Of a stretch of DNA of 64,000 nt, positions 602 to 62,289 are shown in pieces (position 1 is the first letter of the stretch; every line of letters begins with the position of its first letter). The position numbers were made by a program, and so were the translations under genes. Under the pieces are notes generated by a model. That model was not told the DNA's origin, did not search any database, and saw nothing but the letters and a program-made list of their open reading frames with translations. Source of the DNA: Flavobacteriia bacterium (GTDB lineage: Bacteria > Bacteroidota > Bacteroidia > Flavobacteriales > Weeksellaceae); the NCBI GenBank assembly GCA_015999765.1, contig JAECQR010000002.1:124001-188000 (forward strand), written 5' to 3'.

Positions 602-2032
602 ATGAAAAATATATTTAAAATAATAATGGTATTAATCTTACCATTGCTTTTAATCACCGCTTGTCGGGAAGATGCCGACCGTAACTGGACTACTCCCGAA
701 GCATCGTTTAAGTTACACGATACTACCTTGGGCGCTACAGTATTGTATCCATCGATGGAGAATAATCCTTACATCCTTACGTGGGATAAAGTTGCGGGAG
801 CTTCTTCCTATTCAGTTGTGGTTTCTTCAACTGAAGACTTTGCTGCGAAAGCAGTTTTGGGTACATCTTCCACGAACACCCTTACCTCTTCAATAGGAGA
901 GTTGAATACAGCGATGTTGCAGGCAGGTATCAGCCCGTATGCTCCATCAAAAGTCTATGTAAGAGTAGAGAACGGAAATGCAGTGTCTAATACCATTTCA
1001 TTCACTGTAACTCCTTATCCGGTTGATAAACCCGTGATTACTAAACCAACTGCCGGCCAGTCTATCGTTTTAGATGCAGCGAACCCGTTAGTAACTGCGG
1101 CTACAGTAATGTGGACCGACTATTCTTACGGTACGGATGTGAATTATAACGTAGAAATTGCGCCGAAAGGCTCATCGGCTTTTTCTGCTGCCGGATCCAC
1201 TGTAAATACTAAAGAATTAGCTTGGAGTAATTTTACACTTAATGATGTGGCTTTAAAAGCAGGATTGCCGGTAGGTGTATCTTCAGAAGTTGATGTTCGT
1301 GTTACAGCTACTACAACCTCTACTGGTGGTACAATTACTAAAGTTTCTGACATTGTAACCTTCAAAGTAACTCCGTATCAACCGGCTTATATAAACTTTT
1401 ATCTAGTAGGTGGCGGTACTGCTGTAGGCTGGAACGCAGGTGGAGCGCAACTCCTGAAAAACACCAATGAAATTTCAGAGATTTATACTTACCTTGAACA
1501 GAACGGAGAATTCAGATTCCTTGGTCAGCAGGACTGGGGTCCGATTAATTACAGTTTAAACGCTTCTGGAATCAATGATTCGTACAAGTACTTTAATACT
1601 TGGTCAACTAATCTGGAACCTTCAGGAAACGAAAACATGAAGTTTACCGGAAATTCAGGAATGTACAAAATTACCATCAATCAAAACTCAAGAGACATTA
1701 CCGTTACGCCATCATCAGTGCCTACTTTGCCAACCAATGTTTATTTGGTAGGTTCAATTCAGGGATGGAATGCCGGTGCAGCGATCGAAATGACTCAGGT
1801 TGGCGATGGTGTTTATGAGCACACGATTGTAATCCCGGATGGTGCCGAATTCAAATTCCTTGGTCAGCAGGACTGGTCTGGAATGGAATGGGGAAATATC
1901 CACACCGGCGGAAACTCTGGTTTCTTAGGACCGAATGGTGACAATAACAACATCCAGTTCAATGGAGGTGGAAATACCTATGTGATTACCGCTAACATCA
2001 AACTGGGAATTTATAAGGTTACCCCTCAATAA
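602..2032 (+). CDS. SusE/SusF-family surface lipoprotein
   Basis: 476 residues. The N-terminus is a lipoprotein signal (hydrophobic core, then LLITAC with Cys about residue 21), so the protein is lipid-anchored and probably surface exposed. Residues about 30-240 contain two fibronectin/SusE-like beta modules (ILTWDKVAGASSYSVVVS and the later VMWTDYSYGTDVNYNVEI). Residues about 260-476 contain two copies of a starch-binding module, each with a 'YLVG...GWNAG' start and a shared FKFLGQQDW or FRFLGQQDW core. This matches the SusE N-terminal domain followed by SusF/SusE repeats. Role: holding malto-oligosaccharides at the cell surface for the SusCD importer. It lies 26 bases after the preceding SusE/F fragment and is followed by a terminator, so it is probably the last gene of the susCD-EF transcript. 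Confidence 0.88.
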   Translation: MKNIFKIIMVLILPLLLITACREDADRNWTTPEASFKLHDTTLGATVLYPSMENNPYILTWDKVAGASSYSVVVSSTEDFAAKAVLGTSSTNTLTSSIGELNTAMLQAGISPYAPSKVYVRVENGNAVSNTISFTVTPYPVDKPVITKPTAGQSIVLDAANPLVTAATVMWTDYSYGTDVNYNVEIAPKGSSAFSAAGSTVNTKELAWSNFTLNDVALKAGLPVGVSSEVDVRVTATTTSTGGTITKVSDIVTFKVTPYQPAYINFYLVGGGTAVGWNAGGAQLLKNTNEISEIYTYLEQNGEFRFLGQQDWGPINYSLNASGINDSYKYFNTWSTNLEPSGNENMKFTGNSGMYKITINQNSRDITVTPSSVPTLPTNVYLVGSIQGWNAGAAIEMTQVGDGVYEHTIVIPDGAEFKFLGQQDWSGMEWGNIHTGGNSGFLGPNGDNNNIQFNGGGNTYVITANIKLGIYKVTPQ

Positions 2033-2057
2033 ATTTAAATTCCCCGGAATTTTAAAA

Positions 2058-2093
2058 AAACTGTTGCTTTTTAGCAGCAGTTTTTTTGTTTTT
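2058..2093 (+). terminator. Rho-independent terminator after the SusE/F gene
   Basis: ACTGTTGCT and AGCAGCAGT form a stem with one G-U pair around a T-rich loop, followed by a run of seven T and then GTTTTT. It separates the surface-protein genes from the GH97 gene 75 bases downstream. Confidence 0.85.
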
Positions 2094-2168
2094 AAGCGGT
2101 AAATGGTGGCTCAAAAGCTTGGCTATTCCTCACATTTTCTCTAAATTTATTGATTAGAAAATTATCGT

Positions 2169-4325
2169 ATGAAAAATATAAAAATATCTGCGCTTTTCCT
2201 TTTGATGGGAAGTTTCGCACTCAACGCACAGTCTCTGAAATCTCCTGATGGTAAATTTGAAATGAATTTTCAGTTGAAAAGCGGAGTTCCGTTTTACAAT
2301 TTGAAATATGATGGAAAAACCGTTGTTGAAGATTCGAAATTAGGGTTGAGACTTTTAAGGGATGGCGACATTCAGTTTGCTTCCGAAATTGAAAATAAGG
2401 ACCAGAAAGGAAAAAATCTCGACAGCGGGTTTACCAAAACCGGTGAAAAATTCGATTCCAAAAACGAATCCTGGGACCCGATTATGGGCGAGAAAAAATC
2501 CTACATCAACCATTATAACGAACTGGCTGTAACTTTAAATCAGGATGCAAACGACAGACATATTATTGTTAAATTCAGGCTGTTTAATGATGGTTTAGGT
2601 TTCAGATATGAGTTTCCGGAGCAGAAAAACCTGAACTATTTCATCATTAAAGAAGAAGATTCCGAAATTGATCTTCCGACCGATATGAAAGCGTGGTGGC
2701 TTGCGGGCGATTACGATTCTCAGGAATACCAGACGCAAACAACAAATCTTTCCGAGGTTCCTGCAAAATTGCCAACTTCTTACGACGGTAACGCTTCGCA
2801 GACCTTAATCAAAAATGCGGTTCAAACGCCTTTAATGCTTAAAAAAGAAGGAAAAGATCAGCTGTACGTGAATATTTCTGAAGCTGCCGTAATTAATTAT
2901 CCGGCCTCCAATTTAGAACTCGATGCGGCTAATTTTAAATTCAAAACACATTTGACGCCTGATGCGCAGGGTGCGAAAGGCTATATCCAGACACCTGCAG
3001 TTTCACCGTGGAGAACCATCATTGTTTCTCCAAAAGCGGAAGAAGTTCTCGCTTCAAAAATGATTTTCAATCTTAACGAACCGACTCAGTACAAAGACAC
3101 TTCTTACATCAAGCCAACAAAATACATGGGCGTTTGGTGGGAAATGATCATCGGGAAATCGAACTGGTCATATTCTACTGCCAACAATGTTCACATCGGT
3201 AAAACCGATTTCTCTAAACTTACGCCAAACGGAAAGCACGCGGCCAACAATACAAAGGTGAAAGAATATATCGATTTCGCTTCAGCACATGGTTTCGACG
3301 CTTTATTAATCGAAGGCTGGAACACCGGCTGGGAAGATTGGTTCGGCCACAGCAAAGAATTCGTTTTCGATTTCATCACGCCTTATCCTGATTTCGACAT
3401 CAAAATGCTGAACGATTATGCCCATTCCAAAGGCATGAAACTCATGATGCATCACGAAACTTCAGGATCTGCCACTAACTACGAAAGATGGGCAGACAAA
3501 GCTTTCCAGCTGATGAACAAATATGATTATCCGTCGGTGAAAACCGGTTATGTTGGGAATATCATTCCGCGCGGCGAACATCATTACTCACAATGGACAA
3601 TCAATCATTACTTAAGAATCGCTGAAAAAGCCCATGAATATAAAATCATGGTCAACTCGCACGAATCTGTTCGTCCTACAGGTTTAAGCAGAACCTATCC
3701 GAACTGGATTGCCGCTGAAGCCGCACGTGGAACCGAATTCGAAGCATTTGGAGGAAACAATCCGGATCACCAGACCATTCTTCCGTTCACCAGATTTATG
3801 GGCGGGCCAATGGATTACACGCCAGGAATCTTCCAAACCAAACTCGATTATTATTTCCCCGGCGACACAAGATTCGTGAAAACTACGCTTGTGAAGCAAA
3901 TGGCACTGTATGTCGTGATGTATTCTCCGCTCCAGATGGCGGCAGATTTACCTGAAAATTACGCGAAACATTTAGATGCGTTCCAGTTCATCAAGGACGT
4001 CGCGGTAGATTGGGATGACACCAAAATTCTTTCGGCAGAACCTGGCGATTATATCCACACAGCCAGAAAAGCAAAAGGCAAAGACGAGTGGTATTTAGGC
4101 GGAATTACCGATGAAAACGCGAGAAATTATACCGTAGATTTCTCCTTCCTTCCGAAAGGTAAAAAGTACGAAGCGACCGTTTATGCAGACGGCGACGATG
4201 CAGATTATATTAACAATCCGCAATCGTATAAGATTTACAAAAAGACAATTACCAGCAAATCGAAACTGCCAATGAAACTCGCTAGAAGCGGTGGTTATGC
4301 CATTTCTGTGAAGGCGGTGAAATAA
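2169..4325 (+). CDS. susB: GH97 alpha-glucosidase, SusB type
   Basis: 718 residues, the normal length for family GH97. There is a signal peptide (MKNIKISALFLLMGSFALNAQ). An N-terminal beta-sandwich (about residues 25-290) is followed by the (beta/alpha)8 catalytic domain (about 300-600; YMGVWWEM, GFDALLIEGWNTGWEDWFG) and a C-terminal beta domain. Three glutamates can be placed: E430 in HHETSG, E499 in NSHES and E523 in GTEFEA. Their spacings of 69 and 24 equal those of the known SusB residues E439, E508 and E532, which act as bases and acid in the inverting enzyme. That favours an inverting alpha-glucosidase over the retaining alpha-galactosidases of the same family. The likely job is release of glucose from maltodextrins in the periplasm. 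Followed by a dispersed repeat rather than an ordinary terminator. Confidence 0.93.
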   Translation: MKNIKISALFLLMGSFALNAQSLKSPDGKFEMNFQLKSGVPFYNLKYDGKTVVEDSKLGLRLLRDGDIQFASEIENKDQKGKNLDSGFTKTGEKFDSKNESWDPIMGEKKSYINHYNELAVTLNQDANDRHIIVKFRLFNDGLGFRYEFPEQKNLNYFIIKEEDSEIDLPTDMKAWWLAGDYDSQEYQTQTTNLSEVPAKLPTSYDGNASQTLIKNAVQTPLMLKKEGKDQLYVNISEAAVINYPASNLELDAANFKFKTHLTPDAQGAKGYIQTPAVSPWRTIIVSPKAEEVLASKMIFNLNEPTQYKDTSYIKPTKYMGVWWEMIIGKSNWSYSTANNVHIGKTDFSKLTPNGKHAANNTKVKEYIDFASAHGFDALLIEGWNTGWEDWFGHSKEFVFDFITPYPDFDIKMLNDYAHSKGMKLMMHHETSGSATNYERWADKAFQLMNKYDYPSVKTGYVGNIIPRGEHHYSQWTINHYLRIAEKAHEYKIMVNSHESVRPTGLSRTYPNWIAAEAARGTEFEAFGGNNPDHQTILPFTRFMGGPMDYTPGIFQTKLDYYFPGDTRFVKTTLVKQMALYVVMYSPLQMAADLPENYAKHLDAFQFIKDVAVDWDDTKILSAEPGDYIHTARKAKGKDEWYLGGITDENARNYTVDFSFLPKGKKYEATVYADGDDADYINNPQSYKIYKKTITSKSKLPMKLARSGGYAISVKAVK

Positions 4326-4333
4326 ATTTTTCA

Positions 4334-4424
4334 GGAGCTTTTTCCCACTGTCCGCTGTATCTTTTCTGGTGATTTCGCTCCCGCGAAAATCACCAGAAAA
4401 GGATGCCGCTTCCATCGGGGCTAG
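4334..4424. repeat. Dispersed hairpin element, copy 1
   Basis: Begins GGAGCT.TTTCCC.CT.TCCG.T, continues to ATCTTTT, then a long inverted repeat (about 4361-4378 against 4383-4401, loop TCCC), then AAAAGGAT and ends ATCGGGGCTAG. The left and right ends match the element at 16017-16113, but the sequence of the hairpin centre does not. It lies 9 bases past the GH97 stop codon. It could act as a transcription terminator or mRNA 3' stabiliser, or be a REP-like mobile repeat; the sequence alone does not decide. Confidence 0.75.
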
Positions 4425-4475
4425 TTAGAACTTTGTGAATATTGGCGCTCGCTTTGCGCTCGCCACCTAAAATTT

Positions 4476-4508
4476 AACCTTGTCAAGGTTTCAAACCTTG
4501 ACAAGGTT
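4476..4508. repeat. Perfect 15+3+15 inverted repeat before the GH13 gene
   Basis: AACCTTGTCAAGGTT, a 3-base spacer TCA, then AACCTTGACAAGGTT: the two arms are exact reverse complements. Each arm is itself nearly palindromic (AACCTTG/CAAGGTT). It ends 19 bases before the GH13 ATG, so in an mRNA it would form a strong hairpin just ahead of the start. A short direct repeat (GCGCTCGC TTT GCGCTCGC) lies just before it at about 4445-4463. Confidence 0.8.
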
Positions 4509-16016: not shown

Positions 16017-16113
16017 GGAGCTGTTTCCCGCTTTCCGTTACAATCTTTTATTTGGTTGCGGCGGCTCCGCCGCCGCAACCAAATAAAAGGATTTACTCTG
16101 CAATCGGGGCTAG
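16017..16113. repeat. Dispersed hairpin element, copy 2
   Basis: Same ends as the element at 4334-4424: GGAGCT.TTTCCC.CT.TCCG.T, ATCTTTT on the left; AAAAGGAT and ATCGGGGCTAG on the right. The centre (about 16047-16086) is a perfect inverted repeat of 20 bases per arm with loop TCC, rich in GCGGC. It shares no sequence with the centre of copy 1. It follows the purD terminator by 17 bases, so it is not needed as a terminator there. Confidence 0.78.
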
Positions 16114-16211
16114 TGGAGACCCGGCAAAAAAGACAATAAATTCATTTACAAAACGTTCTTTTCCTTATAATTTAAAGAACAGTCATTAAAAAATAAAAAG
16201 TAAAATCATAC

Positions 16212-62154: not shown

Positions 62155-62289
62155 AATCCTCGTTTTGAATGTGAAAAAAAATCAGGCGCGTGTGGTCGCT
62201 TTTCGTAACTTTAACTGTTGCAATTTATTAGAACATATCGGGGAAGCTGAAAACCGGATAGAGTAGGCCGAAAAACAAAAAACACAAAT

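What the first reader, a model, noticed from the sequence alone, without database searches (positions are those of the whole stretch)
4334..4424. Dispersed element with conserved ends and a variable self-complementary centre (copy 1; copy 2 at 16017-16113)
Both copies share GGAGCT.TTTCCC.CT.TCCG.T, ATCTTTT on the left and AAAAGGAT, ATCGGGGCTAG on the right. The 34-40 base centres have no common sequence, yet each is a near-perfect inverted repeat. Complementarity is kept while sequence is not, so the hairpin itself seems to be selected, or the centre is replaced as a unit. This is unlike an IS end or a plain terminator. It could be a REP-like family moved by a RAYT-type transposase, a 3' mRNA stabiliser, a protein-binding site for nucleoid folding, or a cargo-bearing mini-element.
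Basis: seen in the sequence. Interest (0 to 1): 0.75.

Follow-up and report, generated by a model that had tools for sequence, protein, structure and literature searches.

The report
Flavo-1 hairpin with swappable centre
The two repeats belong to Flavo-1, a catalogued hairpin family of Bacteroidota with no known job; copies keep their outer frame while the tip of the hairpin is exchanged for other self-complementary tips, which looks more like a folded single strand of DNA than an ordinary RNA gene or transcription stop signal.

Summary
Both copies (4334-4424, 16017-16113) are strong minus-strand matches to Rfam RF01705, Flavo-1 (69.8 and 68.7 bits, cut-off 42), a 2010 candidate "structured RNA" without assigned function. 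The genome (genus probably Kaistella) holds 32 matches; 36 of 36 genus genomes searched have it.
New here: (1) four covarying shell pairs; one uses all four Watson-Crick types, 112 of 112 sites. (2) Shell better conserved than flanks in 22 of 24 sister-species pairs. (3) The centre is exchanged as a unit inside a kept shell, and similar centres recur at different sites. (4) On the Rfam strand G.T outnumbers A.C, so that strand is the folded one. (5) No significant orientation bias to genes or replication. (6) A 3' box, GCT[CTA]C, lies 4-6 or 29-33 nt after the shell at 155 of 195 sites.
Best reading: a REP-like, chromosome-borne hairpin element acting as a folded single strand, probably DNA; enzyme unknown, RNA not excluded. 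Family known; function open.

The parts
4334..4424 (-). Flavo-1 element, copy 1 (class B, short 3' form), between a GH97 gene and a cyclomaltodextrinase-like gene
   Evidence: RF01705 69.8 bits, E 2.9e-13 at 4337-4426 minus; neighbours by Pfam
4401..4423 (-). copy 1, 5' shell arm TAGCCCCGATGGAAGCGGCATCC
4362..4400 (-). copy 1, variable self-complementary centre (39 nt)
   Evidence: the same site carries other centres in G015, G019 and G021
4344..4361 (-). copy 1, 3' shell arm GATACAGCGGACAGTGGG
4334..4338 (-). copy 1, 3' box GCTCC (GGAGC on the + strand)
16017..16113 (-). Flavo-1 element, copy 2 (class A, short 3' form), between purD and guaA
   Evidence: RF01705 68.7 bits, E 5.9e-13 at 16020-16115 minus; neighbours by Pfam
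16089..16112 (-). copy 2, 5' shell arm TAGCCCCGATTGCAGAGTAAATCC
16046..16088 (-). copy 2, variable self-complementary centre (43 nt); its tip is inverted relative to G005 and G023
16027..16045 (-). copy 2, 3' shell arm GATTGTAACGGAAAGCGGG
16017..16021 (-). copy 2, 3' box GCTCC

Best explanation
Flavo-1 is a REP-like, chromosome-borne, dispersed hairpin element that acts as a folded single strand, most likely single-stranded DNA exposed during replication, repair or transcription. SHOWN by sequence comparison: the strand modelled by Rfam is the one that folds; an imperfect outer shell (5' TAG, four covarying pairs, symmetrical internal loops, an extra C) is conserved in place while flanks diverge; the centre mainly has to pair with itself and is replaced as a unit; there is no significant orientation bias to genes or to the replication fork. 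INFERRED: a protein encoded by the host recognises the shell of the extruded hairpin, whatever the centre; the centre serves as stem cap or spacer; new centres arise by copying between dispersed copies and by template switching inside the hairpin (which also inverts tips). NOT SHOWN: the protein, current movement, and any benefit to the cell.
For: Covariation, one copy per site: 112, 110, 110 and 108 of 112 Watson-Crick, shuffle means 32.6, 46.6, 82.4, 54.9; 111, 109, 109, 107 of 111 after merging sites by translated similarity. Centre mismatches on the Rfam strand, one copy per site: inside the stem G.T 7, A.C 0, other 7; first unpaired step G.T 34, A.C 9, other 57 (p 0.016, and 5.6e-6 pooled). 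Orientation over 122 sites: 44 antisense, 36 sense, 19 convergent, 14 divergent, 2 in ORFs, 7 unknown; replication 20 of 41 and 15 of 40 on the leading strand. Orthologues of G000 and G005, 24 of 24 pairs: shell 983/1039 identical, flanks 1981/2745; shell higher in 22, equal in 1, lower in 1. Centre differs by more than 30% in 31 of 98 orthologous pairs with kept shell and flanks. Similar GC-rich centres at different sites: 48 pairs against 0-3 in shuffles, 22 of them not of the repetitive GCGGCGGC type. Promoter box no commoner just upstream than farther away (13 and 13 of 187). In F. psychrophilum hits lay in sense and antisense of newly defined transcribed regions alike and many lay outside them (PMC9723704, passages).
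Against: G.T asymmetry and covariation fit a folded RNA as well; nothing tested here separates RNA from ssDNA directly. No enzyme was found and no precise empty site; 24 of 30 own loci have an orthologous copy among 30 of the 40 G005 matches, so recent movement is not shown. Some 5' transcribed regions of F. psychrophilum do coincide with hits. On the non-Rfam strand T runs follow the hairpin twice as often as farther away (32 against 16 of 122), so some copies may terminate transcription. The G.T count inside stems is small, and the first unpaired step also reflects loop composition. The 3' box and its two spacings have no place in the mechanism yet.
Confidence: 0.48

Rival explanations
1. 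Flavo-1 is an RNA element, as Rfam classes it: the Rfam-strand transcript folds and is bound or processed by a protein (stabiliser, decoy, sRNA).
For: Strand-specific G.T/A.C asymmetry and covariation; GNA/GNA internal loops exist on the Rfam strand only; Rfam type 'Gene; sRNA'; several 5' transcribed regions of F. psychrophilum coincide with hits (passage).
Against: At 44 of 80 codirectional sites the Rfam strand is antisense to both neighbours; no excess of the recalled -7 box TAnnTTTG upstream; inside centre stems G.T is only 17 of 2161 pairs, and 0 of 223 at the freely varying shell pair; the same passage reports no sense preference and many hits outside the new transcribed regions.
Confidence: 0.3
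2. A REP family moved by a Y1/RAYT transposase.
For: 5' TAG directly before the hairpin foot resembles the 5' tetranucleotide of REPs; patchy distribution, 60 of 392 genomes; Y1 genes are commoner in genomes with Flavo-1, 51 of 60 against 216 of 332, p 0.0024, not corrected for phylogeny.
Against: Tag is CTAG 92, TTAG 50, ATAG 23, GTAG 4 of 180. In 53 Y1 loci, three own and fifty others, the nearest clear Flavo-1 is about 1.0 kb off, in one locus; one more has an 8-mismatch match about 0.6 kb off. 9 of 60 Flavo-1 genomes, one with 67 copies, show no PF01797 match at E<=0.001, though that profile gives a RAYT-like gene of this genus only 21.8 bits, under its cut-off, so absence is not proven. 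RAYT-like genes of the genus have other hairpins beside them.
Confidence: 0.1
3. A double-stranded binding site (nucleoid, gyrase or IHF-like protein), the palindrome being incidental.
For: No orientation bias, intergenic position, not found outside chromosomal collections; A/T tracts around the long form.
Against: All four Watson-Crick types are used at one pair with perfect pairing, and G.T outnumbers A.C: pairing within a strand is selected, not base identity in a duplex.
Confidence: 0.07
4. No function: a neutral palindrome kept complementary by template switching alone.
For: Tip inversion, and paired arm changes in similar centres (10 double, 10 single changes), are the products reported for template switching (PMC8604942 passages, PMC8794818 abstract). 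PMC8604942 also cites higher conservation of short inverted repeats than of their surroundings (passage).
Against: Template switching would erase the non-complementary internal loops, which are kept; the shell, loops included, is conserved above its flanks in 22 of 24 pairs.
Confidence: 0.05

Closest known systems
Flavo-1 RNA (Rfam RF01705)
   Same: Both window copies and 24 of 32 genome matches score over the curated cut-off; same strand, shell and hairpin.
   Different: Rfam files it as an sRNA gene; here without sense preference, with an exchangeable centre, a 3' GCT[CTA]C box in two spacings beyond the model, and a related outer-stem variant (GGGAT...AGCCC) in other Bacteroidota.
REP / BIME / REPIN elements with RAYT (TnpA-REP) transposases
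   Same: Intergenic hairpins with a short 5' tag, dispersed, patchy between species (passages of PMC3733652 and PMC6006769).
   Different: Tag is not GTAG/GTGG, hairpin has internal loops and a variable cap, copy number in tens, no linked RAYT found.
Atypical hairpins beside subclass 2.6 TnpA-REP genes of Bacteroidetes (PMC6006769)
   Same: Bacteroidetes, no GT[AG]G tag, weaker structure, copies elsewhere in the genome (passages).
   Different: The RAYT-like genes seen here have other hairpins beside them (AAACCT.ATAGGTTT type and others), not Flavo-1. Whether they are subclass 2.6 was not tested; the paper's own hairpin sequences (its supplement) were not seen.
MITE-like palindromes with variable middle (ERIC, Correia/NEMIS, BOX; recalled, ERIC and NEMIS also named in PMC3733652)
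   Same: Conserved ends, variable middle, intergenic (recalled).
   Different: No terminal inverted repeats with target duplication shown; the middle is exchanged yet stays self-complementary.

Membership tests
Flavo-1 RNA (RF01705) | covariance-model score over the gathering cut-off of 42 bits | tested here: met
   69.8 and 68.7 bits; 24 of 32 genome matches over it
Flavo-1 RNA (RF01705) | consensus hairpin supported by covariation | tested here: met
   four shell pairs, 108 to 112 of 112 sites paired
Flavo-1 RNA (RF01705) | functions as transcribed RNA | not testable with these tools
   only indirect: no sense preference over 122 sites, passage of PMC9723704
REP element | GTAG or GTGG tetranucleotide at the 5' foot | tested here: not met
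   GTAG 4 of 180; CTAG 92, TTAG 50, ATAG 23
REP element | cognate RAYT gene flanked by the repeat (REPtron) | tested here: not met
   in 53 Y1 loci the nearest clear copy is about 1.0 kb off, in one locus; the Pfam profile is weak for RAYTs, so some genes may have escaped
REP element | paired or clustered in alternating orientation (BIME/REPIN) | tested here: inconclusive
   4 pairs closer than 2.5 kb among 81 matches of two genomes, all in the same (-,+) layout; one repeat array in G173
intrinsic terminator | T run directly 3' of the hairpin | tested here: not met
   T5 within 25 nt: 1 of 122 on the Rfam strand (25-50 nt: 19); on the other strand 32 of 122 (25-50 nt: 16), a minority but an excess; the T-rich arm lies 5' on both strands
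MITE / IS derivative | terminal inverted repeats with target-site duplication | not tested
   no precise empty/filled pair was seen by eye in the sites printed
mobile element of phages or plasmids | present in phage, viral or plasmid records | tested here: not met
   0 viral contigs with two exact patterns; one 86-nt query found nothing in 72,556 plasmids or 50,697 phages

The most novel reading that the evidence does not exclude
Flavo-1, filed as an sRNA for over a decade, is a DNA-level hairpin element of a new build: a fixed, strand-specific outer shell read as single-stranded DNA by an unknown, non-RAYT host enzyme, with an interchangeable apex cassette that spreads between dispersed copies independently of the shell.
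Probability: 0.3. Interest if true: 0.72.

Novelty: already known. Interest (0 to 1): 0.48.

Why it matters
Flavo-1 is widespread in Flavobacteriales (36 of 36 genus genomes; 24 of 25 genomes of g4, probably Flavobacterium, in the phylum sample) and is listed in an sRNA review without function. If it is a DNA element, a standing RNA annotation is misfiled and a hairpin-recognising activity of the phylum awaits discovery. Centre exchange inside a kept shell is a natural test of template switching and of copying between dispersed palindromes, and gives concrete probes (shell, swapped centre, mutated loops) for pulling out the protein.

Tried and rejected
Antisense preference: 59 antisense to 29 sense, p 0.0018, vanished after collapsing orthologous sites (44:36, p 0.43), so it is withdrawn. 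Genes were called as ORFs of at least 90 aa.

Own promoter: TAnnTTTG (recalled consensus) within 60 nt upstream of the Rfam strand in 13 of 187 sites, and also 13 of 187 at 60-120 nt; 7 and 6 on the other strand. Terminator: with the excess on the other strand told above. Replication-strand bias: none significant; origin and terminus were placed by eye from GC skew of twenty 20-kb samples per genome.

Centres as copies of other repeats: 87 of 147 centres had a match outside Flavo-1, but so had 89 of 147 flank controls (40 of 147 shuffled palindromes), so no excess over flanks; six named centre motifs gave few matches outside in 464 kb.

A second small hairpin in the long 3' form: summed energy -90.8 against -72.1, sd 9.1, but only 26 of 56 better than their own shuffles: not claimed.

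RAYT link. The phmmer scan found only its own seeds. Two 9-mismatch pattern matches inside L045 were ignored.

Conservation was first counted on 18 of the 24 pairs (shell 730/764, flanks 1397/2029, centre 431/616, 18 of 18), with six dropped (L008, L017, L020, L024, L029, L034) and with a pattern filter that favours intact shells. It was repeated on all 24 with Rfam coordinates and no filter; that is the count used. The exception is L024/L120, the equal pair L008/L104.

Limits of the counts. The pattern drops copies with more than 6 mismatches. 6 of 186 and 22 of 245 elements were left out of pair counts because their shell length fits neither class. The pattern allows any base at the freely varying pair but prefers purine/pyrimidine at pairs 14 and 15. 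Sites were grouped by nucleotide similarity of flanks; merging by translated similarity changed 122 to 121. In the larger set of 195 sites at least one orthologous pair (L410/L438) stayed apart. Pairs of copies (98, 48) are not independent. In 'kept flanks' means one flank at least 75% and the other at least 50% alike. One search found 45 near-identical pairs at 'different' sites, many with AT-rich centres.

That centre exchange, lack of RAYT linkage and the 3' box are not in print rests on searches only (open-licence papers; supplements not seen).

Full report
WHAT WAS CHECKED. The window was read at both places. Copy 1 lies between a GH97 gene and a cyclomaltodextrinase-like gene, copy 2 between purD and guaA, after a terminator-like hairpin behind purD (by eye; names).

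FAMILY SIZE. The genome holds 32 matches at E<=0.001, 24 over cut-off. 36 of 36 genomes of the genus have matches, 5 to 71 each, with 96 candidates scored per genome. In the phylum sample 60 of 392 genomes and 26 of 178 genera have it, 43 of the 60 in the window's own order, with 11 candidates scored per genome, so counts there are floors. Two genomes of another family hold 67 matches each. 0 of 14 control genomes has it. Nothing was found in viral contigs (two exact patterns), plasmids or phages.

ANATOMY. Of 186 copies, 180 fall in class A (98) and class B (82). On the Rfam strand: 5' TAG; outer stem with one A.G mismatch; a freely varying pair; a 3x3 loop 5'-GNA/GNA; two pairs; a second 3x3 loop (GNA/GNA in class A, GGC/ANA in class B); ATC/GAT stem with an extra C; T-rich/A-rich stem; variable centre. 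That GNA/GNA loops can form sheared G.A pairs is recalled, not tested. DNA folding of the minus strands gives this layout for copy 1 and most of it for copy 2. One copy per site (112 sites): the four varying pairs are Watson-Crick in 112, 110, 110 and 108 cases; shuffles reach at most 46, 61, 91 and 70. Beyond the Rfam model lies a box GCT[CTA]C: of 195 sites, 99 have it 4-6 nt after the shell, 56 at 29-33 nt, 4 elsewhere, 36 not within 60 nt. In the set of 122 sites GCTCC was found within 70 nt in 67, its reversed form in 0, GGAGC in 4, and GCTCC upstream in 4. Eight of 71 multi-copy sites show both forms.

WHICH MOLECULE. In the centres (one per site) mismatches inside the stem on the Rfam strand are G.T 7, A.C 0, other 7; the first unpaired step is G.T 34, A.C 9, other 57. 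So the Rfam strand is the folded one. After grouping 245 copies into 122 sites, sense and antisense to flanking genes are 36 and 44, convergent 19, divergent 14 (unchanged after a second grouping). No significant replication bias, no excess of a promoter box upstream. PMC9723704 (passages) says that several 5' transcribed regions coincide with hits, that hits lie in sense and antisense alike, and that many are not in the newly defined transcribed regions. This favours DNA over RNA but does not prove it.

THE CENTRE. 162 distinct centres in 180 copies. L150 and L292 (G416, G348) have identical shells and flanks 89% and 93% alike, yet centres CTGGCTCCTTTAGCCAG and GTGCCGGGGTTCGGCAC. At the copy-1 site G023 and G019 share 57 of 60 flank bases, 23 of 23 and 17 of 18 shell bases; their centres agree at 27 of 39 positions, mostly the shared arms TTTTTTGGTG/CACCAAAAAA, and differ between; G021 and G015 hold two more. 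The G019 centre core is identical to one at another site in G024. Of 98 orthologous pairs with flanks and shell kept, the centre is identical in 12, up to 10% different in 28, 10-30% in 27, 30-45% in 26, more in 5. Similar GC-rich centres at different sites: 48 pairs, against 0-3 in 20 shuffles; 26 of the 48 are of the repetitive GCGGCGGC type, and the other 22 still exceed the 0-2 of a second set of shuffles. G000 differs from G005 and G023 at copy 2 by an exact tip inversion. Template switching gives arm homogenisation and spacer inversion (PMC8604942 passages; PMC8794818 abstract and outline); it explains inversions and paired changes, not whole-centre replacement, which needs copying between dispersed copies (inferred).

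SELECTION. Between G000 and G005, 24 shared sites were aligned. With ends taken from Rfam coordinates and nothing dropped, the shell is 983/1039 identical and the flanks 1981/2745; the shell is higher in 22 pairs, equal in 1, lower in 1 (L024/L120). In an earlier count on 18 pairs the centre was 431/616. In the alignments orthologues keep their own variant of the free pair (by eye), so this is conservation in place rather than homogenisation.

RAYT. Own Y1 genes: three, no Flavo-1 match within 1.5 kb; two carry other hairpins (by eye). Thirty best and twenty weak-scoring Y1 loci of the order: one with a clear Flavo-1 about 1.0 kb away (L240) and one 8-mismatch match about 0.6 kb away (L269). 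Of the 30 species read at the copy-1 site 13 have Flavo-1, one a diverged copy, 7 a RAYT-like gene with AAACCT.ATAGGTTT-type hairpins beside it, 9 neither (by eye). At the copy-2 site 20 of 30 have Flavo-1, one a remnant, 8 none, one unreadable (by eye). Over the same 392 genomes: both 51, Flavo-1 only 9, Y1 only 216, neither 116 (Fisher p 0.0024, phylogeny not corrected): an association in favour of RAYTs, against nine carriers without a match. PF01797 scores one genus RAYT-like protein under its cut-off, and PMC6006769 (passages) says the profile fits such proteins only partly, so absence is not proven.

LITERATURE. Weinberg 2010 (PMC2864571, passages) holds the name once, in a table. PMC9029176 (passages) lists it without function. 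PMC3733652 and PMC6006769 (passages) describe REPs; PMC6429828 (passages) does not hold the word.

VERDICT. The family is known, its function is not.

Noticed in passing
window 4476-4508 and 4444-4464: Two separate hairpins just downstream of copy 1: AACCTTGTCAAGG...CCTTGACAAGGTT, which resembles by eye the hairpins beside RAYT-like genes of this genus, and GGCGCTCGCTTTGCGCTCGCC.
   Followed up: partly
L045 3734-4339 and the same site in six other species: A RAYT-like Y1 gene (PF01797 21.8 bits in L045, below cut-off; the other six judged by eye) with AAACCT.ATAGGTTT-type hairpins beside it sits between the GH97 gene and the next gene, where other species have Flavo-1.
   Followed up: partly
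L036 (G000:C6:143722-144063) and L038 (G000:C10:216406-216783): Two Y1 transposase genes, each with its own different hairpin nearby (GGGCTTTAGCCC; GGGACARGTCRTGACYTGTCC).
   Followed up: partly
G005:C1 285502/285901, 343657/344622, 1546153/1547920; G348:C1 1715789/1717155: All four Flavo-1 pairs closer than 2.5 kb are in the same (-,+) layout, 5' ends facing each other; too few to judge. The third pair also shares a similar centre (L111, L122).
   Followed up: no
L385 (G173:C1:136001-142000), about 1950-3350: A local array in which Flavo-1-like hairpins lie in both orientations inside a longer tandem-like repeat.
   Followed up: partly
loci L357, L359, L361, L362, L365, L366, L380 and own L024, L029: A related outer-stem variant in other Bacteroidota (GGGATNGNAG...AAAGCCCGACCC), in some followed by an ACCC....GGG hairpin and an outer GCGTTA/TAACGC-like pairing; it may be a sister family that Rfam catches only in part.
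   Followed up: partly
5' flank and 3' insert of the long form (55 and 56 sites): A-rich then T-rich tracts in register on both sides of the element; unexplained.
   Followed up: partly
window 62237-62269: Match to the DUF805b RNA family at 34.1 bits, just under its cut-off of 35.6.
   Followed up: no
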